Source: Cymodocea nodosa (lineage: Eukaryota > Streptophyta > Magnoliopsida > Alismatales > Cymodoceaceae). From it: a stretch of 64,000 nt of DNA. Positions 15,803-48,644 of this stretch are shown piece by piece. The DNA is taken from positions 3,616,001 through 3,680,000 of the forward strand of contig CM072343.1 in the NCBI GenBank assembly GCA_036874045.1. Reading direction: 5' to 3'. The notes under the pieces were generated by a model. That model searched no databases and was not told the origin of the DNA. It saw nothing but the letters and a program-made list of their open reading frames with translations. How positions within the stretch are numbered: the first letter of the stretch is position 1; each line of letters begins with the position of its first letter. A program made the translations under genes and the position numbers.

Positions 15803-15804
15803 AG

Positions 15805-15816: not shown

Positions 15817-15830
15817 AGGTTATTTCTATA

Positions 15831-25769: not shown

Positions 25770-25807
25770 GAAGGTATGGAAAGCAATGGTTCGTGGAAGC
25801 ATTAGCA
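25770..25807 (+). pseudogene. Sliver of Sirevirus gag
   Basis: AAGGTATGGAAAGCAATGG and the following GTTCGTGGA match SIRE-C gag at 15955-15990 (KVWRAVVCG). The LTR sequence before it would normally be ~650 bases upstream. A clean join of LTR to gag therefore marks a deletion spanning LTR end, PBS and Gag start. Confidence 0.75.
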
Positions 25808-26391
25808 TATTTAGAAAACTTTATAAAAAGAACTACATAGTGGGAAAACTCAGCTTTACAGATAAAAGAATATTGCCAAGGGGAATGCATGAAATAGATT
25901 CAAGCACTATACTTGAAGTTGAATTAACTAAATTAACAAGGAAAATAGAAGAGTTATCATTAAATCAAAAGCTAGCAGAAAAGAATGCAAACATTAATGA
26001 CTTAGATATTATTTATGTTAGAAACCAGAAAGATAACTTTGGAAATTCTTATAACCTTAATTGGAGAAATCACCCGAATCTATCTTGGAGAAATAACAAT
26101 TTCTAAGGAGAAAATATAAATGACAAAAATATAAGTTATGAAGCATTAATTGAATAAGGATATAGAATAGAGAAGTTAAAAAAGATAATTCAACAATTAA
26201 ATAATCATCTAAATCATATATTTGGAAATGCTGCCATTCAAAATCAAAATATGAATAGAAATATACCTCCTAGATAAAAGGAATCAATAGAAGTTAGACC
26301 TACTGAAGGATTACCAATGCAAGCAATACCTAACCCTGTTAATAGAACTATTAATGAAATTGATACCTCCTATAGGAAGGAAACTAAATGA
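25808..26391 (+). pseudogene. gypsy-B Gag, C-terminal part, copy 1
   Basis: Closely related to 43190-43774. It shows LPRGMHEID, a coiled coil with IEELSLNQKLAEKNANINDL, and SYNLNWRNHPNLSWRNNNF, the 'NHPNxSW' signature of Athila-type Gag. It ends RTINEIDTSYRKETK at TGA 26389. There are TAA/TAG stops at 26104, 26155 and 26275. The capsid half is missing, replaced by the SIRE-C fusion. The stop at the gag end is at the homologous position in copy 2, so Gag ended here in the ancestor and did not continue into protease. The F-box ORF starts 216 bases on. Confidence 0.8.
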
Positions 26392-26607
26392 AGCAGTATA
26401 ACTAAAGTAACTATGTATAATATAGTAAGTAGAAAAATATAAAAAGAAAAAAAATGAAAGTTTAATTATAGTTAGTAGTATCGTAGAGTTATTACTTAAC
26501 TTAATGAACTTAGTTCGTTGAGTTATAACCTAACTCCATGAGGGTAAGTAGCTATGTTAATTTTATCTCTATTAAATTTTTGTTTATGTTATATAGAATC
26601 ATAATAG
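26392..26607 (+). promoter_or_regulatory. Gag-to-F-box spacer with inverted-repeat module
   Basis: Conserved with 43775-44011. The core at about 26500-26540 reads TTAGTTCGTTGAGTTA, then TAACCTAACTCCATGAG, an imperfect inverted repeat of the type found in the LTR U3 arrays. It is followed by a T-rich stretch up to the F-box ATG. It could serve as a leader or internal promoter for the downstream ORF; that is inference. Confidence 0.45.
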
Positions 26608-27747
26608 ATGGAATTGATGAAATTACCACTAGATGCACTAAGGGAAGTACTAAGTAACTTATCAACTAAAGATTTGTGCAGATTGTGTTGTGTGTCAAAA
26701 GAAATTAAAGAATCTGTTAGAGAAAAATATTTTCGTGGACTGCAAGCTGCAAAAATGACTAAGATTAGAGATGAATTTTTATGGAAGTCATTTAATTGTA
26801 GTTCAATCAGCTATGAATATCTAAATATGAAAGAAACTATTGAAATTCCACCCAATACATTAGAAGGAATAGATCATATTATGGGGATAGATGAAGGATT
26901 AATTGTTTACAAAACCAAACCAAGGTATGCAATTTTGTTACCTGATATTTTGATTAGAAATCCTATCACTAGAGAAGAATGGAATATAGGAAGGCCTAAT
27001 AGATTTGAAGTACCAATTGAAAATTGTGGGTCAGCTTTAACATTTTCTGATAAAAATTCGACCATTCCTGAAAAATTGTATTATTGGAGACCAACTGAAA
27101 ATTGGGATGAAGATTTATGTTTAAGTGTGTATAATTTTCTAAATAGATCTTAGACTAAAAATACTACGATATATCTAGGATAGAGAGCATTAATTAACAA
27201 CATACATGTCATACTTGATGGATATATATATCTAGTGTCAGATATATCAATTGCATTTAGATCTGATTTATACATAGTAAGCATAGACAGTTATGATGAT
27301 GACTTGATAGAAATATTACCTATACTAAGTGATATAACTAAACCACCATCTATAGAATATGATAAAATTCAATTAGGAATGTGGTATAATGAATACGATG
27401 ATCCTACTTTATGTCTGATAAGATGGTGGGATGAATTGATGAAATTTCAAATATGGATTATGAAAGACCTAAATGAATGGAAGTGGGAAAAGGAATATAT
27501 TGAAATATATGTAGAAATATAAACAACTACATTATCTTGGAATAGAAAAGGATCCCTTTCTGCATTTCAGTTTATTAATGGTAATACACTTATATTTAGT
27601 ATTGATAACATACTGCATGTTTACAAGTTAAAAAGGAAAGCAAACTACATTAAAATAGAATTAATAGCAAGAAGAATTATGCCTAAAAAGTTTGCTTGGA
27701 CTAACACATTTATTCTATTTGTTACTACTGTTCAATCATGTTCTTAA
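26608..27747 (+). pseudogene. Captured F-box/FBA protein gene, copy 1
   Basis: A 380-codon frame from ATG 26608 to TAA 27745. F-box motif at residues ~6-45 (LPLDALREVLSNLSTKDL, then CCVSKEIKESVREKYF), the segment that binds SKP1 in SCF ubiquitin ligases. The rest matches F-box-associated (FBA) domains: DEGLIVY (~95), ILIRNPITREEWNIGRP (~115-130) and FQIWIMKDLNEWKW (~280-293), the position of the eIWvM...W motif, then an FINGNTLIFSIDNILHVYKL strand pair. No intron is visible, as expected for a retro-captured gene. Internal stops at 27151 (TAG; Trp in copy 2), 27181 (TAG) and 27520 (TAA). It lies sense-oriented 216 bases after an Athila-type gag, where pol should begin. Known F-box/FBA proteins select substrates for ubiquitination; the target here is unknown. 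Confidence 0.85.
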
Positions 27748-28151
27748 ACTGTGATTTTGTACTTTTAATGTTGTGTGAATTCTGCATTTATTTTTAGAAA
27801 AAGAAAAAAAGAAAAGAAGAAAGAAAAATTTTAGTTTTAGTTTTATTTTATAAGAAAAAGAAAAAAAACAAAATATCAATCCAGTTTGTTGGTATCTGTT
27901 CTGGGAAACCAACTAGCTTGCTTATGAGCCACCAAAGGCATATGAGCCTAAGTTCCACACAAGACACTAATTTAACAAGTTACGTTTTGTTGTTAGATGT
28001 TATTTTGTTATATATATTATGCTTTTATTGGTGAATGAAAAGTTTTTCAGAATCAAAAGTCAAAGGATATTGAAGGAGATACAAAAGAACAAGGTATGTA
28101 ATTACATTCAAACTTAGTTCATGGAGTTATTCATTAACTCAACGAATTAAG
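27748..28151 (+). other. gypsy-B tail after F-box copy 1
   Basis: Conserved with 45152-45540, including CCAACTAGCTTGCTTATGAG and the module TGGAGTTATTCATTAACTCA just before 28151. It is cut there by a minus SIRE-A LTR; in copy 2 the same sequence continues to the GGACAATGC/TATGGGGGGGAGG motif. Confidence 0.65.
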
Positions 28152-29372
28152 TGTAGGATCATATGGCTACACAAGAGGGGGGTGAATTGTGTATTTTTAA
28201 TATTTTCTGAAATATAATTGAAACTTTAAAACTCAAAAACAAGTCGAGACATCGTTTTCATAAAATCATTTTTATTCAAGGTTTCAATTACAATGTACAA
28301 TTCAATTCTCCTCAGAAATTGTAGATGCAATTATAACTCGATACCATGTATCATCTAAATAATTTCATAACTACAAACAGAGAAAACTAATTTGCGGAAT
28401 TTAAAACTTTTCTCCTTGTTTGAGATCTTTCTTTTTCTTCTTTAGCAATTCTTCAGTGACGAATATCTTGTCTTTCTCTGCTTCACCGAATTTGCTTTCA
28501 CTTGATATTTCAAATCTTCAGCAACATAAATTTAACCTTTTCTGCTTCACTGAATTTTCTTCCACTTGAGAGATTTTGCCCGAAGAGGTGCTTTTGATCC
28601 CTGAAAATGATTTTTCTTTTGGTGTGCAGGGATGGTTTGATCAATGAGAATTCTATGCCTTTTATACTATATCTTCATTTCATGCATATCCTTCACATTT
28701 AACCACTACCAGTTTTCCAGTTCTCCATGTCTTTTCTTTTTCCTTCATCGAAACACACACGTTCTAATCCACGTTTATATTTCGAATTTTCTTTAATCAT
28801 TGGTCCTAGATCTCTGAAAAATTTCCTACAAAATAAACTTTCTCGTCCAAAGAATTTTCCATCAAGTGTAATACAAAGTCGTTACTTTAATGTTAACTAA
28901 ACGAGTAACACAAGTATATATATATAACTTAACAAGTTCCTCATGTGCCATTTCACGTGACAAGTACTATAGTTAACTCAACGAACTAAGTCTGTGGTGT
29001 TATGCTAACTCAACGAACCAACTTAACCTTTCTTTTGAAAGGTTAAACGATAACTCACCGAAAATAGTTTAAGTTTCGGATAGTTACGGTTGTAAGTCAC
29101 CGAAAAACTCTTTATACCATAAAACTAGTGAGACACGTGCCAAGACCTAAAAACATGACTTAAGTTACCTTTCGGATATTTACGACTGTAAGTCTTTTAA
29201 AAAACATTAACTCATCGATTCAGTAATAAACAAATGTTTTTATAATAAGAATTTTACCACATGCAAAAATAACAACTTAAGTTTATAACGCTAACCTAAC
29301 GCATTGCCTTAGTGTTCAATATAACAACCAACGCGTTTAGTTATGTTAACTTAACAAGTTAAACATGTGCAC
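28152..29372 (-). repeat. SIRE-A family LTR, minus orientation, truncated
   Basis: On the plus strand it begins TGTAGGATCATATGGCTAC (reverse of the LTR end GATCCTACA) and follows the solo LTR 46459-48069 closely. It stops at 29372, where the equivalent of about 47605 is reached; the remaining ~460 bases of the LTR start are missing. A gypsy-A LTR terminus abuts it. The inverted-repeat modules are at 28930-29220. Confidence 0.85.
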
Positions 29373-29465
29373 TGTAACACTTTTATGTGTTGTTAAATTA
29401 AACGGCAAAAGCGTAAATTTTACATTTATAACCGCAAGTGCACGGTGCCCATTGTAATAAGCATG
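29373..29465 (-). repeat. gypsy-A LTR terminal fragment, minus orientation
   Basis: Starting TGTAACACTTTTATGTGTTG, it is the inverted copy of 37770-37861 (the end of the plus gypsy-A LTR), including the GCACGGTGCCCATTGTAATA block. Homology fades after ~29465. Confidence 0.75.
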
Positions 29466-31284
29466 TACAAGTTAGGTGGCTAACCTTCCGAACTCCCTAT
29501 GGGTGTAGTTTTTTCTGATATTTCTTTTTATCTGCATACTTATAATCAAAACTGCAATTAAATGTTGATATAAAAATTATTTTTGTAAATTTTCTATGAA
29601 ACTACAAGGATTTTACCTTTCTAACAAGATATTATACGTTATATTTGGATTTATATACATTTCTGGAGAATTTTTCTAATATGATATGTTCTGCAGAATA
29701 CGAATTCTGAGTTATCTGAGTTTCACACGATTTTGATAATACTTCAGTTGTGGAAATTTTTGTCTCTGATTTTTCTTAGTAACTAGAAGTAATTACCTTT
29801 TAGACAAATATTTATTTGTGAATTTCTAAGTTGTATAAATTTCTATAGAAAATCTTGAATTTATAGTAGCACAGTTTAATTTCTAAAATCTTGTGTGTGC
29901 TTGATATATTTAAAACTTTGGGTGAAGTTGATGCTTTATTGGTAAAATACATTGTATTTTATGCTGATCATAGTGGCATGAATGTAGGATCTTGTAATTT
30001 AATGAGTTAAGGAAAATGAGGTCTTAAGTGGAATTAAAAATGATTAGTTTTCAATTCTTTTATTGTATTGCAAACTGCTAGTATTACTAAAGACCTAAGT
30101 ACTTGAATTAATTATCTTTGCTCATTTAATCAGTTTTGCATGTCATTATGGATAACTAATAATACTAATAATAATAATAATAATATAATAAAAAATATAA
30201 TTATTAAAAAAATTTTAATTTTGTTGTTTATGTGCTTTATATATACTTTTTTTTTTGATATATTTATTAGTTTTGTAGTTGAGTCTTTTCTTCGTCAAGC
30301 AAGGTACGTACTCTTAATCCTATTACTATATGATGCATTTGAATGATACTTATATTAAGCATTATTTCTTTAGCATACTACTCAATCTCCATTGTATGTT
30401 TTAGGAATAATACAATTTAAATTTATACAAGTGCATATGGATTGCATGTTAGGTATGGGGGGGTGTAATTTTTCCTTGCTTGTCATGATTTGCTTCTTTT
30501 GTTTTTGTCATCTTCATGTTTTTTATCCTATTGCCTAAATGCTTTCTTTTACATTGGGGACAATGCAAAATTTAGGTATGGGGGGGAGGCATTTAATGAT
30601 AGTTTTTTTTTTTTTCTTATTTATTATGTTTTTATAAATGCTCTTAGGTCCTAATGGATAGAGTTCTTTTAGGTATAATTGTGACCTAAAAGTGAATCCT
30701 TTAGGAAAGAAACATTGAACCTTAAGGGGAGGAGAAGAATAAAATCCAAAACCATCCATAATTTTTGAGCTTATATGTAGTATTGCACTTACATGAGGCC
30801 TTGACTAGGAAGGAACCACTTTTCTTGAAGGGAAACTTAGGTAAGAACTTAGGAATATACCTTGGGATTGTCCTATGAAAAGGGTAGAATAAAATGGCTA
30901 AGGTAAAATTGCTCGTTCCCACACAATGATGTGGGAGGCACTCTTAAGGGTAGAGGGCTAGAGAGAAAAAATAAAAAGAAAAACAAGAAAAATGATGAAA
31001 AAAAAAGAAAAGAAAGAAGAAGAAGAGAGATTGATTACTTGTTCTTACAAAGTCTACTAAGTAACCGGTCAACTTTCCCCTAAGTAAGGGATTATGGTCA
31101 CATAAAAAGGTGTTGGAGTAGGAGATAATATAAAAAAAGAGAAAAAAAAAAGAAAAAAAAGAGAGAGAGAGAGTCAAAATAAAGGGACAATGGACTCAAG
31201 GATAGACCTTTGGGATTACCTAGGTAACTTGGAAGGAGTTGAGTAGGCTATTTCTTAGTCTTGACTATTTTCACATACACTTAT
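29466..31284 (+). other. gypsy-A-like non-coding tail, left part
   Basis: No supported gene. From about 30360 it matches the minus-strand tail at 4560-3900, inverted: CTCAATCTCCATTGTATG, then TTAGGTATGGGGGGGTG (~30450) and CATTGGGGACAATGCAAAAT plus TAGGTATGGGGGGGAGGCA (30553-30595). An ATA/AAT-rich microsatellite sits at 30155-30185 and GA-rich simple sequence at 30960-31185. The stretch 29466-30130 I cannot assign. Confidence 0.55.
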
Positions 31285-31659
31285 TGTGATGCGTGTGTCT
31301 TCCATCAAGTATATGTATGTGTCATTGAATATGGTTGTATTTCTTTGACAATTTGTACAAGGGCAAACTTGTCTTTTGGGTATCACCAATCGTTGCCCCT
31401 ATATATATGTAAGGGGTAATCCACGTCCAAGGGATGCCATGCCAAACCATCCCTTGATTTCATTCTCCCCCTTCTTTGTACCAGCAACCATACAACAAAG
31501 AATCACAATAGATTGATCACCCGTGGACGTACCTGTGTTGGGGAACCACGTAAATTTGTTGTTCTTCGAATTCTCCACTCGCAATCCTCTCTTCTACGTA
31601 GATCTCTTCTCCACGCCACCCCTAGATGCTCCACGTTTGTTTGATCTTTCCGCACAACA
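31285..31659 (+). repeat. 5' LTR of the short-LTR copia element
   Basis: 375 bases, TGTGATGCG to CGCACAACA. It includes CCCCTATATATATGTAAGGG (31397-31416), a likely TATA region, and GGGGAACCACG before the end. Confidence 0.92.
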
Positions 31660-31701
31660 ACTAGTATTAGAGCCAGGTTGGACATCTCTAGGTTTGCATT
31701 T

Positions 31702-32069
31702 GAAGTTTCGAAGAGTTTCATCAAGGTTCAAGCTATTTCCGCAAGGGATCTCTCCATTGTTGTAACTGCCATCGTCGCCGGCGCCAGTCTGCACACTCCG
31801 ACGCCAAGTCGTGCGCCTTCCTCGTCCGTGCTCCTTTGCGTCTCAAATTTTGAGGACGTGTAGTAAGCTTCATGAAATTCCTTCCTTTAAAATTTCGAAG
31901 AGATTGATCACGGTTCAGGCCATTTCCGCAAAGATATCCCCCATTGCTACTACTGTCATCGTTGTCGGTGCCAATCTGCACACTCTGACGCCAAGTCGTG
32001 TGCCTTCCTCGTCTGTGCTCCGTTACATCTCAAATTTTGAGGACGTGTAGTAAGCTTCCTAAAATCATG
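31702..32069 (+). repeat. 188-base tandem duplication, GC-rich
   Basis: Two diverged copies with a 188-base period (compare GGACGTGTAGTAAGCTTC at 31853 and 32041). They contain CCAAGTCGTGCGCCTTCCTC/CCAAGTCGTGTGCCTTCCTC blocks and are visibly richer in G+C than anything nearby. They stand where gag and protease should be. The overlapping small ORFs in it, on both strands, are not convincing. They may be a captured host fragment. Confidence 0.75.
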
Positions 32070-34769
32070 CAGCACTCAAGGATGGGTCATTTAAGGCAGA
32101 AAGGAATGCAGAAACTAAGTAGTCTGGGCAAGTTTGATGGGCACAAGATTGCTTGTATTGACATGTGCAAGCATTGTGTCTTTGGCAAACATAAAAGAGT
32201 GTCATTTGCACGCAGTCAGCATAGCTCCAAGGGAGTTCTTGATTATATTCATGCTAATTGTTGGGGGCCTTCACGTCAGCCTTCTATTGCAGGTTCCAGA
32301 TATTTTCTTTCTATCATTTACTGTCATTCAAGGATGAACTGGGTTTTCTTTTTGACACACAAAAGTGAAGCTTTTTCTTGCTTCAAGCATTGGAAAAAGT
32401 AGGTAGAAAACCAAACAGACAAAAAGGTAAAATATCTTAGAACTGATAATGGTCTTGAGTTTTGTTCTCAAGAATTTGATAACTTTTGTAAAGATGAAGG
32501 CATTACATGGCATAACACTGTTAGGTATACCCCTCAGCAAAATGGAGTGGCTGAAAGATTGAACAGAACACTCCTAGAAAAGGCACGTTGTATGTTGTCT
32601 CATGTAGGTTTGAGCAAGAAGTTTTGGGCAGAGGCTATTAACACAGCTTCCTATCTGGTGAACAGGTCCCCTTCTAATGCCTTAGATGGGAAAATACCTC
32701 TTGACGTATGGTTGAAAAGATCTACTAGTTATTCAAATCTCATAATTTTTGGGTGTCCAGCTTACTATCATGTGAACAATGGCAAGCTGGAACCACGTGC
32801 CAAGAAAGGCATATTTGTGGGTTATGGTGTTGGTATAAAGGGATACAGGATATATGATATTGAATCTCACAAAGTAATATATAGCCGTGATGTTACTTTT
32901 GATGAGAATTCTCTTTTGTAGGCAATAGATAAACTAGCAAGTGAAACCCTAGAAATTGAGCACACCCTTCCTAAATAGATGGAGATAGATGACGCACAGC
33001 AGCCGTCTATCACTAATCAAGTTGAAATTAGAGAAATCTCATCTGAAACTTAGGAAAATGAAGTTGAGGAGGAAGAGGTGGAGCAACCACAACCAATAAC
33101 CATTGGCAAAGATCGTCCTAGAAGAGACGTTAGACCTCTGATTAGATATGGCTACGACAGTTTGGTTGCTTTTGCCTTACAAGTAGCAGTTGAGGTGGAG
33201 GATTCTGTTGATCCACTTACATATGAAGCTACAATGCAAGATTCAGAAGCTGGTCTTTGGATGTCTGCTATGGAGGAGGAACTCCAATCTCTCCATAAGA
33301 ACAAGACTTGGGAACTGGTGAAACGTCCAAAGAATACAAATATTGTTGGTTGCAAATGGGTCTATAAGAAGAAGATTGGGACTCAAGGCAATGGAGGTGT
33401 GCAGCACAAGGCAAGATTAGTTGCCAAAGGTTATTCACAGTGACAAGGAGTTGATTTCAATGAGGTATTTGCTCCTATTGTACGTCATACATCTATTAGA
33501 ATTTTGTTATCCATTACTACAGCACAGAATTTAGAATTGGAACAACTAGATGTAAAGACGGCCTTCTTGCATGGTGAGTTGGAAGAAAATATTTGGATGG
33601 AACAACCAACAAGGTCTGTGGTGAAAGGTAAATTTGATTGGGTGTGCAAATTAAATAAGTCCTTGTATGGACTTAAACAGTCATCATGCCAATGGTACAA
33701 AAGGTTTGATGCATTTATAGTTAAAGTTGGTTTTAGACGCAGCAACTATGATTCATGTGTATATGTTAAAACTCTTGATAAAAGTACACATGTTTATTTG
33801 TTATTGTATGTTGATGATATTCTTATAGCTGCGAAAAATATCGAAGTGATACAGGAGCTGAAGGACACATTAAAATCAGAATTTGATATGAAGGATCTTG
33901 GTCCAGCTGGTAGAATTCTTGGAATGGAGATTAGGCGTGAAAGAAATTCTGGTAAGCTATTTTTGAATCAATAGAAGTATATTGAGAAGATCCTTAGCAG
34001 ATTTGGTATGGCTTCATGCAAAGCCACTAGCACGCCTTATGACAGAAATGTCAAATTGTCATCTGCAATGTGTCCACAAACTGATTCTTAAAAGCTTGAT
34101 ATGCAGCGAGTTCCTTATGCACAGGTAGTTGGAAGTCTTATGTATGCTATGGTATGCTCTAGGCCTGATCTAGCATATCCTTTTAGTGTTGTTAGTAGGT
34201 TCATGTTCAATCCGAGCAGGGAACATTGGAAAGTAGTTAAAAGGATATTCAGATATTTGAAAGGAACTCCAGGTGTTGGCTTGATGTATGCAACAAATCA
34301 GGGTTGTACTATGGCTGGTTATATAGGCTCAGACTATGCAGGTGATGTTGACAGAAGGAGATCATTATCTGGTTATGTCTTTATATTTGCAGGTTCTATT
34401 GTGAGTTGGAAATCAACTCTTCAGCCTATGGTATCTCTGTCCACAACTAAGGCTGAATATGTGGCTATGACAGAAGCTGCAAAGGAAGGGATTTGGTTGA
34501 AAGGCTTACTTGGAGACTTTGGTTGGCGCATTGATAAAACTGATATCTTCTATGATAGTCTTAGCGCTATTTGTCTCTCCAAAGATAATGTCTTTCATGA
34601 TAAAACTAAACATATTGATGTTAAGTATCACTTCCTCAAGAATGAAGATAGGATAAAGATTATGATGGTCAACACAAAGGACAATCCGGCTGATATGTTT
34701 ACAAAGGGCGTTGTTGAAAGCAAGTTCAAGCATTGCTTGGACTTACTCAACGTCTATTGTTGCTGCTGA
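32064..34769 (+). pseudogene. Pol of the short-LTR copia element (5'-deleted)
   Basis: One frame throughout with nonsense codons only. It begins in the GAG-pre-integrase domain (HSRMGHLRQKGMQKLSSLG). The integrase core has TDNGLEFCSQEFDNFC and PQQNGVAERLNRTLLE (32440-32585). RT has WVYKKKIGTQG, LEQLDVKTAFLHGELEE (33535) and YVDDILIAAKN (33808). RNase H has DYAGDVDRRRSLSGYVF (34335) and TKAEYVAMTEA, ending DMFTKGVVESKFKHCLDLL. The family end resembles Tork/Tnt1-type elements, unlike the Sireviruses nearby. Stops lie at 32400, 32919, 32976, 33051, 33441, 33972 and 34089. It is not autonomous: no gag or protease. Confidence 0.92.
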
Positions 34770-34837
34770 CCCAAGTTGGGTCTTGGTGATCCATCACCTA
34801 TTCGTGGTGAAGATTGATGAAAGACAATGTGGAGATT

Positions 34838-35208
34838 TGTGATGCGTGTCTTCCATCAAGTATATGTATGTATCATTGAATATGGTTGTATTTCTTTGAT
34901 AATTTGTACAAGGGCAAATTTGTCTTTTGGGTATCACCAACCATTGCCCCTATATATGTAAGGGGTCATCCACGTCCAAGGGATGCCATGCCAAACCATC
35001 CCTTGATTTCATTCTCCCCCTTCTTTGTACCAGCAACTATACAGCAAGGAATCACAATAGATTGATCACCCGTGGACGTACCTATGTTGGGGAACCACGT
35101 AAATTTGTTGTTCTTCAAATTCTCCACTCGCAATCCTCTCTTCCACGCAGATCTCTTCTCCACGCCATCCCTAGATGCTCCACGTTTGTTTGATCTTTCC
35201 GCACAACA
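34838..35208 (+). repeat. 3' LTR of the short-LTR copia element
   Basis: 371 bases, matching 31285-31659; starts after GTGGAGATT and ends at CGCACAACA before the CTTAT duplication. Confidence 0.92.
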
Positions 35209-35213
35209 CTTAT

Positions 35214-35674
35214 TTATATAGTACTTTACTTTCTTAGGATAAAAATTGAATAATTATTTGAATCCAAACTAGAAAGGTGAGAGGTAATTGAATAAAGGTG
35301 AAGCTAATAGGTCAAGACTACTTAAGAGCAATTTTATCCATGTTTAGGAAACTAAGAGCATATTTTTGTCATTTTTGTCTTTCAATTGTGTTGTTGTATG
35401 TTCTGTTTTGGATTTTGTGGGTATATCTGCTGAAAACCCTCTAGAGACACAACTCCACCACTAGGGTGACCTAGGGGTTAAAGGCTTGCTGCACATGCTA
35501 TGTGTAGTCGTGATCCCTACGAAAGTGGCTTAGGTTAGTTCTATTTTTGTTATTTGTTTATTAGTTGTTTTTGTTTTCTATTTTTAATAAGTATTTTTTC
35601 ATATGGGCTTTGTGTTATCATTGTTTAGTTTTAGTCCTTTGCTAAGGGACTAGCAAAGACTAGGTATGGGGGTG
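35214..35674 (+). other. gypsy-A tail (right part) and polypurine tract
   Basis: Continues the tail interrupted at 31284. 35420-35540 matches, inverted, 3395-3510. It ends AAGGGACTAGCAAAGACTAG, then GTATGGGGGTG, immediately before the LTR start TGTAAAG. Confidence 0.7.
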
Positions 35675-37861
35675 TGTAAAGTTTCAATTTGTGCATTTTA
35701 TATATGTTAATTCATGCATATTAAGGATTATAAGTCATCATTATATATGTTCTTATGAAAGATTACATGAAAATCATATTTTAGAACTATGCATGTTTTA
35801 TTGGTTAAATAGTCAATAATACACAAATTTATCCTTTATTAAATTAACACCTAGTCAATTTGCCCATGTGTAGATATAAGTAATTTATATATTGATTTCA
35901 TGCATATCTTAAAAGAATTATCATTAAGATATGAAATCAAATAATCCTCAATTGAACAAGCAATATATTATGCACATTTCATTTTTGCTTTATAATCTAG
36001 TAGGAATTTATGTGTAATGTGCATATGCATTTAATGTTATCTTTTGAGTTGTTGATAATAGGTGAGGACGTGGACCCTTGGATTAAATCATGGGAAATCA
36101 ACAACTCATGGTCATCCAATTCAAACTCCAAATCAATTCATCAATCAATCAATTAATGATTAAAACTTGCCTAAATTAGAAGGTCTCAATTGGAAGGAGT
36201 TTGAAATATTTCCATAGATGGATGACAATGGAAAGCAAAAGAGGATGGTTGGCCAAAGGAAAGATCATGTCCTCTTTCTCCTCCACGCAAGGGCAAGAAC
36301 TCCAACTCCAATTTTCGTCCATCCTCCTCCATCAAAGATTTTGGAAGAGTTTTCCTCCAAGATTGGTGAGCTTAGGCGCCTTCCCCCTCATCTTAGATGA
36401 CCTCCTTTTCTCCACTCCAAGCCGACATACGAAAGGATCTCCATGGGTGAATTTGGTGGTATTGGAGGCACATGTGCAGCATTGGAAGAGCTTGGGATGT
36501 GATCTTCAAGATGAGGTAATTAGGAAGCATCAAAGTTGAAGAAGAAAGTCAACAAATCTATGTATTTTGGAAGTGGATTGAGGACATGCAACCCATTTTC
36601 TCCAAAGCAAACATAGGCAGTTCCCCTTTGGACGTGATTTGCAAGTGGTGACAGCCTTGTAGAGGAGTGGACAAAGTGGTTCATCATCAAATAAAGATCA
36701 AATGCTTGAAGAGAAGTGGATGAATTAAAGGTAAAAGAGAAGGGAGAGATCCTCATACTTGAATATCAAATTTTCATATCATGTGTATGAGTATTTAGGT
36801 TTTCAATTCATTTGTTATGTGCACATGTAGTATGTTATTTAAATGATGATTTTGTTTAAGAATATTAGTTTTTTTACAATATATTTCGTAGAAAATGATT
36901 ACTTCATGTGAATGTGTGAATGTTGTGCATAAAACTAACTCTTAACCCTTGTGAATGCGTGTATATCCTATTTGCTGTAAATTCTAGTGCATGTTCCATT
37001 TTGTTATATGTTTTACGATTCGATTCCATTGAGTTTTATGTCGTGTTATAGCTTTTTTTGTAAGTACTTTAAGTGTACAATACGTATGTAGTGTTGTCGG
37101 AATTTTTTAAAATGCATTTCTTTGGTTTTTCGATTATTCTTTCGAAGGTAGCATTTGCTCTGTTTTACTGGTAGAGTGATAGAAATTATGCTAGACGCCT
37201 TTGTGTTGCCTTGCTTTTGTGTATTCCGAAATATTTTCTTGTAAATTTTCCTGATTAGAGAAATGAGTTATCTATCAAGGCACGGTTATTTCGTGGTGTT
37301 TCATGAAGATTTTATTGAGTTATGATTTTTACACCAATGATGTGTTTTTGGAAAGTTTTCATAATTGTTTTGCGCACTATTTGTATTTCTGACTTTGGCA
37401 GCAACCTAAAGAGAATTAGTCCTGGAAATAACTTCCATTTTAAAGATAACTTGATGACCTTTTCAACCAATATTTTCTCTAGATTTTTCAATGTCCAAGT
37501 TAGAAGTAAGAAGAGTTAGAATTCAAACTAATTTTTGTGATTCCAGAAACGTGAACTTAAGATTTTCTTGAGTTTCCTAACTATTAGCTCTAGGAATTAA
37601 CAAGTTTTATGCTATCTTTGAAATCTTTATTATATTTTTGTAAATTATAACTTAATTACATGTAATTAGAGTTTTAATTGTGGATTTAATGGTATAGATG
37701 CTTTATCAAACAATCATTTTAATAAAATTATTTAAGACAAACTCCTTATGGATTCGACCCGTACTTGCACATACTTATTACAATGGGCACCGTGCGCTTA
37801 CAGTTATAAATGTAAAATTTGCGCTTTTACTGTTAATTTAACAACACATAAAAGTGTTACA
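35675..37861 (+). repeat. gypsy-A 3' LTR, plus orientation
   Basis: Starts TGTAAAGTTTCAATTTG after the PPT. It ends with the block GACCCGTACTTGCACATAC ... GGGCACCGTGCGCTTAC ... AACACATAAAAGTGTTACA at 37861. It matches the minus LTR 1426-3255 and the solo LTR 54204-56263 at both ends. Small ORFs within (36201-36756) are not supported. No TATCCGAAA modules occur in it, unlike the other LTR families here. Confidence 0.85.
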
Positions 37862-38163
37862 CATAGATTCTATGGATGCAACAAACATTGGCAGATTATA
37901 AACTTAAGTTTTAGAATATAATTATTTACTATGATAGTAGTAGTGCCATAAATCTCTCCAAAAATATAGCCCTCCACTCAAGAGCAAAACATATCGAAAT
38001 TAGGTACCACTTTCTAAGAGACCATATTGAAAAAGGTCATATTTCTTTAGAATATGTCTCTACTAAAGAACAATTAGCAAATATTTTCACTAAACCAATA
38101 TCTGAATCTGCATTTAATCATATTAGATGAAATTTAGGAATTTGTTCTTTGTATGATTTATAA
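37862..38163 (+). pseudogene. SIRE-B RNase H end, fragment
   Basis: Matches 60436-60738: AINLSKN, then ALHSRAKHIEIRYHFLRDHI, EYVSTKEQLANIFTKPISES, ending GICSLYDL and TAA 38161. It starts abruptly at the gypsy-A LTR end. Premature stops lie near 37890-37930. Confidence 0.85.
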
Positions 38164-38516
38164 TTCAATGCTTATCTACTCTCTAAGCTCACAACCAAGA
38201 GCTTGTTCCACTAACATTTTCTCTTGCAGCAACTTAGCCAAATTTTAGGACAACCATGAAATGTCTAGATATAATTATTTCAGCTTAAACTCCTTTTGAC
38301 AAGTGGCAAAATAGGGAGAGAAAATTCCAATATTATTTCAGCAGGTTACAATAAAGTAGGGGGAGTAAACTTAGAAAAATAGGGGGAGCAAATTCAAATT
38401 CAAATTCAAATTTAGTATCCTATTCCTTCTTTGTGCATTTATTTGTATAGCTATATAGGGAGACAAATACATGTAAAATATTGTAATGTTTTTGCCATTA
38501 TCAAAAAGGGAGAGAT
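38164..38516 (+). other. SIRE-B 3' tail with polypurine tracts
   Basis: Contains AAAGTAGGGGGAGTAAAC, then AAAATAGGGGGAGCAAATTC, and finally CATTATCAAAAAGGGAGAGA next to the LTR: three PPT-like copies, the Sirevirus arrangement. Confidence 0.8.
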
Positions 38517-40047
38517 TGAAAGGACCTCTAGATTTTGATAATGCAAAAATCAATGTGAGGAATATTCTTTTGTATTTCATAGATCATCAGATTAGTAGTT
38601 AAAGTTAGTCACCAACAGATCATTTAAAGCTGATAGATGAAATCAGAAGGATTAGACAGTTATCAGTCTAAGTATCTAGAAGAAGCAGATTTTTAGAAGG
38701 TTAAATGCCTAAGTATCCAAAAGACCACTTTAAGGAAGCAAGCAAACTCTTCGGAAAATTACAGGTTTAACTATCTGAAAATAAGGTCTTTGGAATGTTA
38801 GAAAAAAAGTTTGAATTCTTCGGAGAGTTAGGACAACTAACTATCTAAAAATCTAAGGAAATTGGTAAGTTAGAAAATCTAACTATCCGATAAGTTAAGT
38901 CATTTAAAATGCATGTGATGAAAGTTAGAAGCAAAGAAAGACATCTGTTCAAGTTTTCGGAAAGTTAAAATGGTAACTATCCGAAAATACAAGCAAATTG
39001 AAAAGTTATCTAGAACAACTATCCGGATAGTTAAGTTAGAAGAATATGCATGTGCAAAAATTGAACTCATAACAGACAAAGGCTTAAAAGGACTTTTGGT
39101 AAGTTAGAAAAACTAACTATCTGAAAATTGAGAAGTTTCGAAAGGTTACAGAATGAACTATCCGAAACTTAAGTCATCCTATTATACACATGCCTAAATA
39201 GAATAACTACAGTCAGAAGCTTTGAAGGAAATCAGAGAGTTACTGTAGCTAACTATCTGATAGTCAAAAAATATTTCAGTAAGTTACAGCGACAAGTATC
39301 TGAACTTAAGACACCTCACATGAACGACTTAAAATCCCATGTGACACAAACAAAAGGACTTAAGTGGATTATTGATGAGTTACAGACATCCTTTAAAGAG
39401 TTACATAGCTAACCATCCAAAAGTCAAAGGAAATCAGAAGGTTATCTTGAAACACCTTCCTAAATGGTAACTTACCATATTTGGACCTGTAATTTCAATA
39501 AGTACAACAAAATACATCTGTTAGAAGTGAATATGATCGTTATGCTGAATGTTATAAATATAAATAGCAAACAAAAGAGTATGACAACTTTTGAATATAC
39601 AAATCCATACATCAAGCTTCACATATACAGTAGAACATCTTCAATATCAAATCTTCAACAAAGGCAAACTCAAGTCTAGAGCTCTCTACCCAAATAAACT
39701 TTGATTTCTTCAAACTATTGGTTTACTGAAGTGCACCAACTGAAAACTTTAGAGATAGGTTGGTTGGAGCTATGACTAGAAAGTTCAGTTCAATTGGTTG
39801 ATTCTTGCTTTGACCTTAAAGCAAGTGTTTGTAAGTCTTGAAAGATTAGTGAAGCCCAAGTATCCCTTGAGGGTGGACTAGTCATTAGTGGTGAACCACG
39901 TAAAATTCTTGTGTGCATTGTCTTCTTTTATTTTGTGCTTACTGAATTAAACTATCAATTAGTCATTCATTGTTAAAATCCTGAAATTGCATTTAAGAAA
40001 CTAAATATAACCATTCACCCCCCTCTGGTAAGCCATTAGGTCCTAAT
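38517..40047 (+). repeat. SIRE-B LTR (3' LTR of the truncated copy)
   Basis: Starts TGAAAGGACCTCTAGATTTT and ends ACCCCCCTCTGGTAAGCC plus GGTCCTAATA near 40047; the same family as 52638-54033. Inverted-repeat modules run 38660-39450. Confidence 0.88.
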
Positions 40048-40048
40048 A

Positions 40049-41361
40049 ATAAAGAGCCAATTTTTGTAGATTTATTGTTAGAAGAAGAAGAAAATTAAGA
40101 GTAGGAGCAGCGAAGGGAAGAAAAATAGGCTGATGAAGAGCTGTAGCCTAAAGAAACTGAAGTAAGGGTAGAATATGTTGTGCCTAAGACTCCATCCCAA
40201 TCTGCCACTAAAACAAAAATAACAGTAACAATGTAGATAGGTAGTGAGAAGGAAGAAGAAAGGGAAGAAGCTGAGTAGGAAGCTAAACAGAATGAAAAGA
40301 ATTCGATAGATTCCTCTAAAGAGAATGAAACTCTTCAGCAATTAATGGAGAAATTAAAAGATAGAAGTGTGGAAAGTTCTGTAAGCTCTCCACCACAATT
40401 AAGAGTTGAAAGGTAGGAATCTTCGGATTTTTTTCAGCAACAAGTACAACAACAAGTTCAGCAAATTGAAGAACAAACCACTCTAGAGCAACAAATCCAA
40501 ATTCTTGACTCATCTGAAGCAACAATTTTGAATAAAGTTCACTTTTGGAGTTAGGAAGCATCTAATAAGTATCAAGAAATAAAGGGGTATGATATAATTT
40601 ACAATAAGCCAGTAGACTGGACTAGAATGGATGATATTAGAGAATTATTTGAATTACAGGGCCTACTAGAATTAATTCCAAAGCAAAAAGGGCATGTAGT
40701 TTATGAAAATTTAATGCCCTATTTTATGCAAATTTGAGAGGAAGAAGGAAAATTAATTGCAAACGTGGAGGAAGTTAATATATAGATAACACTCAATCTT
40801 CTCCACAACTTATTTGGATTAAGGAATGAAGGAATTGAAATTTTGGAAGAAACAACTGTAGTGGAATGAACTAAATAGGAAATTAAGCAATGCATAGCTA
40901 GTGACCCTCATGTGCCACTACTTAATAGAATGAAGTACTTAAATGGAAAGGCACACATGGTGGCAACTATATTGGTAAAAACTATTTATCAAAGACAAGG
41001 CCACAATATTGAACTAAGTCAATTTGTCAAGTGGACCACTTATGTAGTTATTAATAGAATTCAAGTAAATTGGTCTAGAGTATTTATCTCTAAGCTGAAA
41101 GTAGTAAAGAAGAAATTATTTTATGGAGATTTGATTCTATTACTGATGGTGGAAGGCATAGACTTCACTAAATGGACATCAAAGAGGATGAAATCTAGAA
41201 CCATTTCTGTGAAGGAATATAGAAATTATGTTTTTCCTGTTGTTGCTTCTATTGTTGGACCTTTTGGAGAATTTATAGGAGTTATGAATCATATAAATCA
41301 ATTAGAACAACAACTAGAAAAGCTCCAGAAGGAAGTAGATGAATTAAGGAATAGGGATTAA
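40049..41361 (+). pseudogene. Sirevirus accessory ORF, third copy (5' end missing)
   Basis: A Glu/Lys/Gln-rich stretch (40049-40550) with many TAG stops leads to the globular part RMDDIRELFELQGLLELIPK (40627). The final open piece 40912-41361 has HMVATILVKTIYQRQGHNIE and NRIQVNWSRVFISKL...KKKLFYGD. A C-terminal coiled coil (LEQQLEKLQKEVDELRN) ends at TAA 41359. Homologous to 9445-11686 and 22226-24169. The SIRE-B LTR lies directly upstream, so that element inserted into this ORF. Confidence 0.7.
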
Positions 41362-41865
41362 ATGTATTATTCATCTACTTGTACTAAAAAATATCTGATT
41401 GTATGTAATTGTAAATAACATATATATATATGAATGTTTGAACATCAAGATGTTGTTGAATTCGTATGTTTGAGAGTGAATGATTTAATTTAGAACTATA
41501 TTAAAGATAAATTTTGTATATATATTTGTTTAAAGCTTTGCAAGACAAGTTTTCTTATTTTCTGTCCAAGATTTCTAAGGTTTGAAGGTTGATTTGAGTA
41601 CTAAAACGTTTGAGGAAAAATTTGAAACTCCTCTAATATGTGTGGCTAAGTTTTTAAAATTTTATGAATGATATGATTAAATGCATGATGATTTGATAAT
41701 AACTGAATATATCTACATACTAAAAAGTAAAATGTAATTTCTACATAACTAGAAATGAACTGTATGTTAAATATGCATATAATGTTTAGATTTAAATGAG
41801 TTTAAATTGAAACACTGCATTAATGTAATGTATTTAACTTTATTTAAGTTGATAAAATGTAGGGA
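41362..41865 (+). other. AT-rich stretch after the accessory ORF, no gene seen
   Basis: Contains an AT microsatellite (TATATATATATG about 41420) and purine-poor AT-rich DNA. I recognise nothing else in it. Confidence 0.4.
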
Positions 41866-42640
41866 AAAAATATAGAAGTTAATATGAGAAGTTTCTTAGG
41901 AAAATTTGCTAAGTGTTAATTCAACGAAGTTAGTTCGTGGAGTTAACCTTAATTCTACGAAGTCAATAATAAAATATAAGGTCACTCCGTTGAGTTATCT
42001 GTAACTCAATGATGTTAGTTTGTGAGTTAGCAAATAGAAGCTAAAGCTAGTTTGTTGAGTTAGCTGTAACTCAACGAGATTAGTTCGTTAAGTTAGGAAT
42101 AGTAATTGAGGTCACTTCATTGAGTTATAAATAACTCAATGAAGTTAGTCCGTGAAGCTAGCTGAACGATTATTCTTTTCTCCACAAATGAAACTTCCTG
42201 GGTTTAGCAATTACTGAAATTTAAAAATTAGAAGTGGAACACGTATCCATAAAAATAGGAATCATACCATACGTTACAAGACACGTTCTTGCAATGAGAT
42301 TCATCTACATTATGGACGTGCATTATAAATATAGAATAGAATGTTATTTACTAATTACCAGTAATTGAGAAGAGGAAAGAGAACTCATTGGGGGAACTAG
42401 AAGGACAAGTAGTTGATTCAACTTCATCTATCAACAACTATTTATTTAGAACAAAGCTTCAAACTTGTATGTAACTAATCTTCTGCATTTTACTTTATGT
42501 TAAGAGTTTATGAGCACATGGACTCATTGTCCAAGCACTAAACGATTAGTAAGAATACCTACACAGGATTATTCAACATAGAGGTGTACTAAAATATTAT
42601 CTGAATTAGTCTTTAACGAAATCCTTAGGGGTGTAGCTAA
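41866..42640 (+). repeat. Probable LTR fragment with module array and TATA box
   Basis: 41890-42165 is an array of GTTGAGTTAGCTGTAACTCA-type inverted repeats. It is followed by GCATTATAAATATAG (about 42323), a good TATA box, and ~300 bases of leader-like sequence to the Gag region. This U3-TATA-leader order suggests an LTR. However I cannot see a matching partner, a terminal GTACTTGCAC block or a PBS. It may be the remains of the 5' LTR of the F-box element or of another Sirevirus. Confidence 0.45.
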
Positions 42641-42665
42641 CCTTTCTTTAAAGGAGAACAAAGAT

Positions 42666-43774
42666 ATGGTTGCTCTAGTAGAAAAACTATTAGGGAAAAT
42701 TCTATATCTTGAACTAATTGATGAACCTTCATGTATTCGATTGCCAAACTTTGAGGGAGATAGGTTTGAACTGAAATCTAATTATATTAGTCAATTGCCA
42801 CACTTTCATAGATTAGAAATAGAAGATACCTATTATTTCCTTTTGCTTTAAAATACACAACTAAGAGACAATTATATACTCTATCACCTAATTCAATTTC
42901 TACATGGATTGAATTTTGCTCTATTTTTTTGGAAAAATATTATCCAACACATCAAATGATTAAAAAGAAAAATGAAATATTAATGTGTAGCCAAAAATAG
43001 GGAGAATCATTTTGAAATTATTTTGAATGATTTAAAGATTTACTAACTCAATATCCACATCATGCAATGAGTAAAGCACAATTAATAGGTATAATTTATG
43101 AAGGCATAGATGTTTCAACTAAATCTTTATTAGAATCTACTTATTAGAATGGATTTTTAAAACTGTGTAGTGAAGAAACATGGGCATACTTAGAAAGCTT
43201 TGCAAAAATAACTACTTAGTAGGAAAACTCAATTGAAGCTATTACAAATAAGAAAATATTGCCAAGGGGAATGCATGAAATAGGTTCAAACACTATGCTT
43301 GAAGTTAAATTAATTGAGTTAACAAAAAAAATAGAGGAGTTATCATTAAATCAAAAACTAGTAAAAAAGAATGCAAATATTAATGACTTAGATATTATTT
43401 ATGCTAGAAACTAGAAAGATAAATTTGGAAATTCTTATAACCCTAATTGGAGAAATCACCCAAATTTATCTTGGAGAAATAACAATTTCCAGGGAGGAGA
43501 AAATATAAATGACAAAAACATAAGTTATAAAGCATTAATTGAATAAGAATCTAGAATAGAGAAATTAGAAAAAATAATTCTACAATTAAACAATCGTCTA
43601 GATCATGTATTTGGAAGTGCTGCCAATCAAAATATGAATAGAAATATAACCCCCAGATAGAAGGAATTAGTAGAAGTTAGACCTATTAGAGGACTTCCAA
43701 TGCAAGTAGTACCTAACACTTTGAATAGAATTGTTAATGAAATTGATACCTCCTATGGGAGGGAAGCTGAATAA
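42666..43774 (+). pseudogene. gypsy-B Gag, copy 2
   Basis: Athila-like Gag. N-terminal motif FELKSNYISQLPHFHRLEIE with the EDTYYF segment. Capsid part has STWIEFCSIFLEKYYPTHQM (about 42895-42960) and the AQLIGIIYEGID helix. Then ILPRGMHEIG, a coiled coil, PNWRNHPNLSWRNNNFQGG (about 43445-43500) and the end IDTSYGREAE at TAA 43772. I see no CCHC zinc knuckle in it. The end coincides with copy 1, so this Gag is a stand-alone ORF without a protease. Stops (mostly TAG) lie at about 42849, 43000, 43146, 43218 and 43545. Confidence 0.8.
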
Positions 43775-44011
43775 AGCAGCATAATTATTAACCACTATGT
43801 ATAATATAGTAAGGAGAAAAATATAGAAAAAAGAAAACATAAAAAATGAAAGTTTAATTATAGTTAGTAGTACCATAGAGTTATTGCTTAATTCAATAAA
43901 CTTAGTCCGTTGAGTTATGACCTAACTCCACGGAGGTATATGTAAATAGCTATGTTAATTTTATCTCTATTTAAATTTTGTTTATGTTGTTGAAAAACTA
44001 AATCATAATAG
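43775..44011 (+). promoter_or_regulatory. Gag-to-F-box spacer with inverted-repeat module, copy 2
   Basis: Counterpart of 26392-26607. AACTTAGTCCGTTGAGTTA, then GACCTAACTCCACGGA, at about 43898-43936 forms an imperfect stem closer to palindromic than in copy 1. The rest is T-rich to the ATG at 44012. Confidence 0.45.
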
Positions 44012-45151
44012 ATGGAATTGACAGAATTACCACTAGATGCATTGAGGGAAGTATTGAATAATTTATCAGCTAAAGATCTGTGTAGATTGTATTGTGTATC
44101 ATGACAAATTAAAGAATGTGTTAGAGAAAAATATTTTCATGGACTACAAGCTACCAAGATGATGAATATTAGAGAAGGATTTTTATGGAAGTCATTTAAT
44201 CATAGTTCAATTAGTTATGAATATCTAAACATAGAAAAAACTACTGGAATTCCACCCAATACATTAGAAGGAATAGATCATATTATGGGAATAGATGAAG
44301 GATTGATTGTTTATAGAACCAAACCAAGGTATGCCATTCTGTTACCTGATATTTTGATTAGAAATCCTATTACTAGAGAAGAATGGAATATAGGAAGGCC
44401 TAATAGGTTTGAAGTACCAACTGAAAATTGTGAGTCAGCTTTAACATTTTTTGATATAAATTTGACTATTCTTGAAAAATTATATTACTAGAGACCAACT
44501 GGAAATTAGGATGAAGATCTATGTTTAAGTGTGTATAATTTTCTGAATAGATTTTGGAATGAAAATATTATGATATATTTAGGAGGGAAAGCATTAGTTA
44601 ACAATATATATGTCATACTTGATGGTTATATATATATAGTCACAAATATATTAGTTGCATTTAGATTTGATGTATATATAGTAAGCATAGATAGTTATGA
44701 TGATGACTTTATAAAAATATTACCTATACCTAAGGATATAGCTGAACCACCATCTACAGAACATGATAAAATTCAATTAGGAGTATGGTATAATGAATAT
44801 GATGATCCTACTTTATGTGTAATAAGATGGTGGGATGAATTGATGAAATTTCAAATATGGATTATAAAAGACCTAAATGAATGGAAGTGGGAAGAGGAAT
44901 ATATTAAAATATATGAAGAAATAAAAACAACTACATTATCTAAGACTAGAAAAGGATCAATTTCTGCATTTCAATTCATTAATGGTAATACACTAGTATT
45001 TAGTATTGATAACATACTGCAAGTTTACAAGTTAAAAAGGGAAGCAAACTGCATTAAAATAGATTTAATAGCAAGAAGAATTATGCCTAAAGGTTTTGCT
45101 TGGACTGACACGTTTATTCCATTTGTCACTACTTTTCAATCATGTTCTTAA
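44012..45151 (+). pseudogene. Captured F-box/FBA protein gene, copy 2
   Basis: Again 380 codons, ATG 44012 to TAA 45149, alignable to copy 1 without a gap. F-box at residues ~6-45 (LPLDALREVLNNLSAKDL). FBA features are the same: DEGLIVY, ILIRNPITREEWNIGRP, FQIWIIKDLNEWKW and FINGNTLVFSIDNIL. Stops at codon 31 (TGA 44102), codon 160 (TAG 44489) and codon 166 (TAG 44507). The last two are Trp (TGG) in copy 1. None is shared with copy 1. Codons 167-379 are fully open. The gag and the tail around it are also homologous to copy 1, so the F-box moved with the element rather than being two insertions into host genes. Confidence 0.87.
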
Positions 45152-45670
45152 ATTATGATTTTGTATTTTTAATGTCGTATGTATTTTGCATTTATTTTTA
45201 GAAAAAAAACTTTAGTTTCTATTTTATTTATCTTACAAGAAAAAAAAGAAAGAAAAACAAAATATCAATCCAATTTGTTGGTTTCTGTTCTGAGAAACCA
45301 ACTAGCTTGCTTGTGAGCCACCAAAGGCGTAGGAGCCTAGGTTCCACACAAGGCACTGATTTAACAATTTATGTTTTGTTATATATTTTGCTTTTATTTG
45401 TGAATGGAAAGTTTTTCAAAATCAAAAGTCGGAAGATATTAATGGAGATATAAAAGAATAAGGTATGTGATTGATTACTTATTTTGAATTTACATTCAAG
45501 CACAATTCGTGGAGTTATTCATTAACTCAACGAATTAAGTTTGTTGAGTTAGGTGCTAAGTCAACGAAACATTATTCATGCTTGCTAGTATATACTGAAT
45601 TTACTATAAATCTTTTATATTGAGGACAATGCAAAATGTAGGTATGGGGGGGAGGTAATTAGATTAAAAT
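45152..45670 (+). other. gypsy-B tail after F-box copy 2
   Basis: Conserved first part as in copy 1, then a module (GGAGTTATTCATTAACTCAA, then GTTGAGTTAGG, 45508-45560). Next is ATTGAGGACAATGCAAAATG plus TAGGTATGGGGGGGAGG (45618-45655), the same motif found in gypsy-A tails. Confidence 0.7.
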
Positions 45671-48640: not shown

Positions 48641-48644
48641 TATT

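What the first reader, a model, noticed from the sequence alone, without database searches (positions are those of the whole stretch)
26608..45151. F-box/FBA gene carried by an Athila-like Ty3/gypsy element, two copies
Seen: two 380-codon ORFs (26608-27747, 44012-45151) with an N-terminal F-box and FBA-like C-terminus. Each lies 216-237 bases downstream of an Athila-type gag in the same orientation, and gag, spacer and tail are all homologous between copies. Known: F-box/FBA proteins are substrate receptors of SCF ubiquitin ligases, and some plant viruses use F-box proteins against RNA silencing (polerovirus P0 against ARGONAUTE1). Inference: the retroelement may use the captured F-box to remove a host silencing or restriction factor. 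It could also be a passive transduplication.
Basis: partly seen in the sequence, partly recalled or inferred. Interest (0 to 1): 0.92.

Follow-up and report, generated by a model that had tools for sequence, protein, structure and literature searches.

The report
F-box gene in plant retrotransposon family
A plant jumping-gene family has taken up a gene for a protein of the kind that marks other proteins for destruction, has spread it to thousands of places in the genome and seems to have kept it working while it spread, which suggests that the element uses it against, or together with, its host.

Summary
Both window "ORFs" are broken (three internal stops each). They are two decayed members of a large family: one F-box 26-mer hits 3,513 places in this 375-Mb genome (control 0), with gag (3,316) and integrase (3,483) in near-equal number. 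On contig C1 the spacings give one order on one strand: integrase, 4.6-5.6 kb, gag, 1.2 kb, F-box, 2.1-2.3 kb, polypurine tract|LTR. The F-box thus sits downstream of pol, next to the 3' LTR, where accessory ORFs usually lie. The gag before it is a capsid-type gag that also lies 3' of pol, which is unusual.

The F-box frame shows purifying selection: omega 0.50 against 0.61 for gag in the same 21 copies, 0.81-0.95 in neighbouring noncoding DNA; 0.65-0.68 in the half not used as query. This disfavours passive hitchhiking. The 17 aligned copies match F-box and, more weakly, F-box-associated models. A low-copy F-box set, about 32% identical, is the nearest relative found outside the family.

Best reading: a selected accessory gene of an Athila-like Ty3/gypsy family, probably an SCF substrate receptor. 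Its target, including any silencing factor, is untested. My paper searches showed no F-box ORF in an LTR retrotransposon.

The parts
25796..26391 (+). copy 1: 3' part of the capsid-type gag (5' part missing), broken
   Evidence: blastn to gag of L009, 88.8% over 25796-26607; stop codon located
26392..26607 (+). copy 1: gag-F-box spacer, acceptor-like AG before the ATG
26608..27747 (+). copy 1: F-box/FBA reading frame, broken by three internal stops
   Evidence: 92.0% DNA identity to the F-box of L009
27750..28152 (+). copy 1: start of the noncoding tail D', cut by a later insertion from about 28152
40151..42503 (+). copy 2: end of the linker and ORF1 with the PF20167-like region (40555-41355)
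   Evidence: tblastn 67.5% to the PF20167-like ORF of L017; tiles; PF20167 E=8.9e-6, below cut-off, on L017
42504..43774 (+). copy 2: capsid-type gag, broken
   Evidence: stop codon located
43775..44011 (+). copy 2: gag-F-box spacer
44012..45151 (+). copy 2: F-box/FBA reading frame, broken by three internal stops
45153..48684 (+). copy 2: noncoding tail D', interrupted by an insertion at about 46459-48070, ending in the polypurine tract at 48671-48684
48685..50733 (+). copy 2: 3' LTR (first bases TA instead of TG)
   Evidence: one mismatch to the PPT|LTR junction 29-mer at 48671; LTR of L026 matched in pieces to 50733

Best explanation
The two window sequences are broken copies of an Athila-like Ty3/gypsy LTR retrotransposon family that carries an F-box/FBA gene as a standing accessory gene, in sense, between pol and the 3' LTR. 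Its protein most likely acts as an SCF substrate receptor: the F-box end docks on host SKP1, the FBA end picks a protein for ubiquitination, and removal or control of that protein helps the element replicate. Shown here: the family, the order of parts, the copy number, the F-box homology and the purifying selection. Inferred: SKP1 docking, expression (perhaps from a spliced 3' mRNA), and the nature of the target.
For: Copy number: F-box 3,513, integrase 3,483, gag 3,316, PPT|LTR 4,042 and 5' zinc-knuckle 2,519 places at up to 2 mismatches, each reversed control 0. Order on C1: gag to F-box 13 pairs at 1,159-1,214; integrase to F-box 11 pairs at 5,171-6,738; F-box to PPT|LTR 17 pairs at 2,095-2,286; no opposite-strand pair in these three intervals. 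Integrase-linker-ORF1 run on to the F-box without an LTR between in L011 (gag missing there), L029+L009 and L031+L026. Domains: RVT_1 2.2e-31, RNase H, integrase, gag PF03732 9.2e-7. Selection: omega 0.53 (32 copies) against 0.84 and 1.01 in its wrong frames and 0.81-0.95 in D' (15 copies); 0.50 against gag 0.61 in the same 21 copies; codons 182 to the end 0.68 (32 copies) and 0.65 (12 copies not chosen for open frames). Omega=1 is rejected: 2dlnL 91.3 (21 copies), 20.2 (second half, 32), 57.0 (whole frame, 12), 10.7 (second half, 12). N/S falls from 3.02 in singletons to 1.19 in variants shared by three or more of 28 copies, p=1e-6. PF00646 matches 17 of 17 aligned copies. Three Skp1-family matches in the genome.
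Against: No expression or binding data. In the sample drawn by tail similarity 0 of 5 F-boxes are intact, and both window copies are broken. The neutral yardstick itself is 0.81-0.95, so 0.65-0.68 in the less biased half is a moderate difference, and it averages in neutral decay after insertion. Shared variants shift in D' too (N/S about 3.0 to 2.05); F-box against single D' frames gives p 0.047, 0.014, 0.026, and with transversions only 0.25, 0.0003, 0.005. Fixed subfamily differences: p 0.014 at the looser threshold (12 N: 12 S), 0.093 at the stricter (10 N: 8 S). The 20 main copies were picked by F-box protein similarity and open frames. No copy with both LTRs, target-site duplication and all parts was read whole; the layout is composed from pieces and distances, and about half of the 20 copies have something else upstream. 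The first aligned copy is under the TIGR01640 cut-off.
Confidence: 0.62

Rival explanations
1. Passive transduplication: the F-box was captured once and hitchhikes without use.
For: 0 of 5 F-boxes in the tail-drawn sample are intact and both window copies are broken. Retrotransposons are known to carry captured gene sequences (PMC7264820, part 1 of 3 read). Some variant tests are weak (p 0.047, 0.093, 0.25).
Against: Omega 0.50-0.53 against 0.81-1.01 in wrong frames and noncoding DNA. F-box numbers match gag and integrase numbers. The frame is kept in two subfamilies.
Confidence: 0.13
2. The F-box serves the element's own economy: it tunes turnover of Gag or other element proteins (self-restriction or capsid maturation) and does not attack a host factor.
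For: It lies immediately 3' of the capsid gag in the same module, with constraint similar to gag in the same copies (0.50 against 0.61).
Against: No direct evidence either way; the target of the C-terminal domain is unknown.
Confidence: 0.2
3. The F-box copies are host genes or host pseudogenes, and the gag neighbours are coincidental insertions.
For: A low-copy F-box set exists in the genome: nine loci at 39-100% identity to the probe L044.
Against: The window type occurs at about 3,500 places, with repeated spacing to gag, integrase and PPT|LTR. The low-copy probe is 31.6% identical to it.
Confidence: 0.03

Closest known systems
Athila / Calypso / Diaspora lineage of plant Ty3/gypsy elements (PMC2410132 and PMC1142308, passages read)
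   Same: Retrotrans_gag, PR-RT-RNase H-INT order, a PBS-like site of the tRNA-Asp type (by recall and that paper), long LTRs, pol-less derivatives; gag and env ORFs of Athila are reported under purifying selection.
   Different: Those papers describe gag-pol as one ORF with gag first. Here, in the one clear 5' part read (L034), a zinc-knuckle frame precedes PR, while the PF03732 capsid gag lies 3' of pol, followed by an F-box gene.
Orchid Gypsy elements with an AlkB-type m6A RNA demethylase ORF (PMC9289625; abstract, section 12 and a term search seen)
   Same: A cellular enzyme-type domain fixed as an additional ORF in a multi-copy Gypsy lineage; active in vitro and proposed to act on host surveillance.
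   Different: Different domain. The screen of 121 angiosperm genomes reports 15 uncommon domains, and the main text never holds the word F-box; it used RT as marker. Its supplements were not seen.
Additional ORFs of plant LTR retrotransposons (PMC7264820, part 1 of 3 read; Retand, PMC11963269, passages read)
   Same: Extra ORFs most often sit between pol and the 3' LTR and may be conserved in most copies.
   Different: Those described in what I read are env-like sense ORFs or antisense ORFs, not F-box proteins.
Plant-virus F-box silencing suppressors such as polerovirus P0 (PMC6593998 and PMC3588083, search listing with start of abstract)
   Same: F-box or F-box-like motif in a mobile or viral genome, with possible use of the SCF machinery.
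   Different: No homology is claimed. P0 function is studied in those papers; nothing was tested here. This protein has an FBA-type C-terminus.

Membership tests
Ty3/gypsy LTR retrotransposon | PR, RT, RNase H, then integrase in that order | tested here: met
   L034 and L031: Asp_protease_2 3.8e-4 (below cut-off), RVT_1 2.2e-31, RT_RNaseH, rve 1.8e-15 with Integrase_H2C2, in that order
Ty3/gypsy LTR retrotransposon | LTRs with PBS and PPT at the internal borders | tested here: met
   PPT AAGTATGGGGGAAG directly before TGTTTAG; alignments start at that base; PBS-like sequence after the LTR in L026 and L034. The tRNA-Asp match is from recall and PMC1142308, not computed
Ty3/gypsy LTR retrotransposon | target-site duplication around a complete copy | not tested
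Athila lineage | RT phylogeny inside Athila | not tested
   no reference RT set on hand; Athila-likeness rests on recalled gag and INT motifs and the PBS type
Athila lineage | gag 5' of pol in one gag-pol ORF | tested here: not met
   capsid gag lies 4.6-5.6 kb downstream of integrase (6 same-strand pairs and 1 opposite in that range); the 5' region of L034 starts with a zinc knuckle
F-box protein (SCF substrate receptor) | N-terminal F-box domain | tested here: met
   PF00646 39.2 bits, cut-off 20.5, in L003/L009; 17 of 17 aligned copies match
F-box protein (SCF substrate receptor) | FBA-type substrate domain | tested here: inconclusive
   TIGR01640 matches 17 of 17 (best E 1.3e-8), first member 32.1 bits against a cut-off of 37.9; 38 of 145 genome matches are marked over the cut-off, at least one of them not a family copy; PF07734 weak, 6 of 17
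F-box protein (SCF substrate receptor) | binds SKP1 and acts in an SCF complex | not testable with these tools
functional accessory ORF of a retrotransposon | present across the family and under purifying selection | tested here: met
   counts; omega; see the weaker tests in the Against line

The most novel reading that the evidence does not exclude
A plant retrotransposon family encodes its own SCF substrate receptor that removes a host silencing or restriction factor, expressed with the capsid from a separate 3' module. This would be a retroelement analogue of viral F-box suppressors, combined with a permuted gene order (pol before capsid).
Probability: 0.22. Interest if true: 0.94.

Novelty: new variant of a known kind. 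Interest (0 to 1): 0.74.

Why it matters
Accessory genes of plant retrotransposons seldom have a recognisable biochemical role. An F-box gene kept under selection in a family with some 3,500 F-box places points to the ubiquitin system as a place where element and host meet, and gives a defined protein to test. The 3' position of the capsid gene raises a separate question: how such an element expresses Gag and Pol.

Tried and rejected
First thought: a direct repeat of about 1.7 kb around one copy was taken for LTRs, giving a 12.6-kb element. Tile mapping showed that repeat to be the linker after integrase; the LTR starts at the PPT.

Idea of a purely non-autonomous gag-F-box element: rejected as the main form. 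LTR-gag-F-box copies without pol exist (3 of the 20 fetched: L015, L021, L028), but their joints differ, as expected of separate deletions.

Idea of an F-box-less sister family: 14 same-strand integrase-to-PPT pairs at 8,488-8,788 (one opposite-strand pair at 8,691) hold no exact F-box 26-mer. One of the 14 was read (L043) and holds a diverged F-box with one stop; 13 were not read. Nine further pairs at 5,047-6,520 without an exact F-box 26-mer stay unexplained and may be deletions or an F-box-less form. One deletion-like copy without F-box was seen (reverse strand of L031).

Homologues elsewhere: no hit at E<=0.001 for one copy or for the alignment of 17; how many plant proteins that collection holds is not known to me. 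None in the PDB at E<=1. FBA_1 and FBA_3 in this genome: no match at E<=0.001, but no control genome rang either, so this shows little. A first Fisher test pooled three frames of D' (p=0.0034); it counts variants three times and is replaced by single-frame tests.

Paper searches for an F-box ORF in LTR retrotransposons. I read the listings (one search showed 20 of 147 papers) and one passage of PMC7602945 (an F-box gene with TEs in introns, not this); no such report seen.
Full report
1. What is at the coordinates. The F-box homology is real (PF00646 E=2.6e-10) and so is the upstream gag stretch, which ends 216 and 237 bases before the two F-box starts. But neither window copy is an open 380-codon frame: internal stops stand at codons 182, 192, 305 and at 31, 160, 166. 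Gag, spacer, F-box and tail are homologous between the copies.

2. It is a large family. A protein search of the window's own genome (374.6 Mb, 28 contigs) gave 5,405 candidates, of which only 150 were scored; apart from the window copy itself these are 85-91% identical over the first 181 residues. A 26-mer inside the F-box frame occurs at 3,513 places with up to two mismatches; the reversed control has none. The same kind of count gives 3,316 for gag, 3,483 for integrase, 4,042 for the PPT|LTR joint and 2,519 for a 5' zinc-knuckle stretch, each with control 0. These counts depend on how well each 26-mer is kept.

3. Anatomy. Twenty copies were fetched with about 10 kb each, chosen for long open frames, plus flanks of a few. 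Tiles mapped onto them and the places where repeats end give this composed order: LTR (about 1.9 kb, starting TGTTTAG); PBS-like site; a short frame with a CCHC zinc knuckle; protease; RT; RNase H; integrase; a linker of about 2 kb; ORF1 with a PF20167-like region (E=8.9e-6, below cut-off); capsid-type gag (PF03732 9.2e-7); about 0.2 kb spacer; F-box/FBA; about 1.85 kb noncoding tail; PPT; LTR. The sum is about 17 kb, but no copy was read whole. In 10 of the 20 the linker lies upstream within the stretch (L009, L010, L011, L016, L017, L020, L023, L025, L026, L027); the others are cut, rearranged or end earlier, and three have the LTR directly before gag. Where the sequence reached beyond the linker, integrase preceded it without an LTR between: L011 (gag missing), L029+L009, L031+L026. 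In the one copy with a clear 5' part (L034) no capsid gag lies between LTR and protease.

4. The order on contig C1. Among exact matches listed there (100 F-box, 44 gag, 100 integrase places; a shared span with 59 F-box, 83 integrase and 100 PPT|LTR places): gag to F-box, 13 same-strand pairs at 1,159-1,214 bases; integrase to F-box, 11 at 5,171-6,738; integrase to gag, 6 at 4,620-5,611 with one opposite pair at 4,877; F-box to PPT|LTR, 17 at 2,095-2,286. Fourteen integrase-to-PPT pairs at 8,488-8,788 (one opposite at 8,691) fit the same layout although none holds the exact F-box 26-mer; the one read holds a diverged F-box (L043, 76% amino-acid identity, one stop). Nine shorter pairs at 5,047-6,520 are unexplained. 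In the zinc-knuckle list only 9 places fell in the span and no spacing emerged.

5. Intact and broken. Of the 20 copies fetched for open frames, 9 have an uninterrupted frame of 378-379 codons. Of 6 places drawn by similarity of the noncoding tail, 5 hold F-box sequence and 0 of 5 are intact. That sample is small, but decay seems to be the rule.

6. Selection. Under a codon model (IQ-TREE MGK+F1X4, fixed FastTree topologies, stops masked, values read from the logs) omega is 0.53 for the F-box in 32 copies, 0.84 and 1.01 in its wrong frames, 0.95, 0.81 and 0.85 in the noncoding tail (15 copies), 0.61 for gag (21) and 0.37 for ORF1 (10). In the same 21 copies F-box is 0.50 and gag 0.61. Copies were found with the first 181 codons (omega there 0.41), so the later codons are the fairer test: 0.68 in all 32 and 0.65 in the 12 copies not chosen for open frames. 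Omega=1 is rejected with 2dlnL 20.2 and 10.7 for these two, 91.3 for the 21 and 57.0 for the whole frame in the 12 (nine kappa values tried); the noncoding yardstick is itself below 1. Internal branches are only about 18% of tree length, so the values mix constraint with neutral decay. Variant spectra agree but are weaker: in 28 copies singletons have N/S 3.02 (257/85), variants shared by three or more 1.19 (107/90), while the tail falls from about 3.0 to 2.05. F-box shared variants against single tail frames give p 0.047, 0.014, 0.026; transversions only 0.25, 0.0003, 0.005. Third codon positions hold 86 of 199 shared variants (p=0.002 against one third). Two subfamilies differ by 12 N and 12 S fixed changes at the looser threshold (p=0.014 against singletons), 10 N and 8 S at the stricter (p=0.093).

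7. The protein. The 17 aligned copies all match PF00646 and TIGR01640, an F-box-associated family (best E 1.3e-8; the first member is below the curated cut-off). No homologue was found among predicted proteins or solved structures. The best TIGR01640 match in the genome (49.8 bits) is not a family copy: 31.6% identical over residues 118-268 (451 bases read). It belongs to nine loci at 39-100% identity to it, six of them with stops inside; the other listed matches, 30-37% identical, are or look like the retroelement copies (150 of 4,418 candidates scored). Whether the nine are host genes or another element could not be read. They are the nearest relatives outside the family found; the donor is not identified. 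Three Skp1-family matches exist.

8. Expression hints. About 11 bases before the F-box ATG lies a pyrimidine-rich stretch ending in an acceptor-like AG, kept in 22 of 28 copies (read by eye; a first script pattern caught 17 and its list of misses shows five more). The spacer of L009 folds better than its shuffles (z=-4.0). Both are suggestions only.

9. Reading. The F-box is best read as an integral, selected accessory gene. Docking on SKP1 follows from the domain family; a target has to be assumed. An anti-silencing role is attractive because viral F-box proteins do this (PMC6593998, listing only), but nothing here points to a particular target, and control of the element's own Gag is as compatible. 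Passive hitchhiking is disfavoured by the constraint, not excluded.

10. Known and new. [quoted passage not shown] An F-box in that role was not seen in the searches listed under Tried and rejected. The 3' place of the capsid gag also departs from the plan in PMC1142308 and PMC2410132 (passages).

Noticed in passing
window 14055-25771: Direct repeats of about 1.24 kb, 90% alike (14055-15298 and about 24537-25771), enclose Copia integrase (rve and SH3, 18298-19107) and a PF20167-like stretch (23408-24085): apparently a Copia element that truncates F-box copy 1. No target-site duplication was shown.
   Followed up: partly
window 28152-29288, 46459-47392, 11637-12858 (minus): A repeat of about 0.9-1.2 kb, 87-92% alike, in the noncoding tail of both F-box copies at different points and a third time in reverse.
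   Followed up: partly
window 60752-62951: LTR-like pieces 74-86% similar to the F-box family's LTR: a related family or an old copy.
   Followed up: no
L036 (C1:5968500-5978000): Two units 7,748 bases apart with a broken F-box, 99.9% alike over 1,753 bases; three exact F-box 26-mers on C1 keep that same step, suggesting a recent tandem duplication.
   Followed up: partly
C7:17066786-17067439 (L044) and eight further places: A low-copy F-box/FBA set, about 32% identical to the retroelement F-box: possible host relatives of the donor gene.
   Followed up: partly
L009:4500-4800: The gag-F-box spacer can form a strong hairpin (z -4.0 against 100 shuffles); conservation not tested.
   Followed up: no
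C1, integrase-to-PPT pairs of 5,047-6,520 bases: Nine element 3' halves shorter than the F-box layout by about 2-3.5 kb; could be deletions or an F-box-less form.
   Followed up: no
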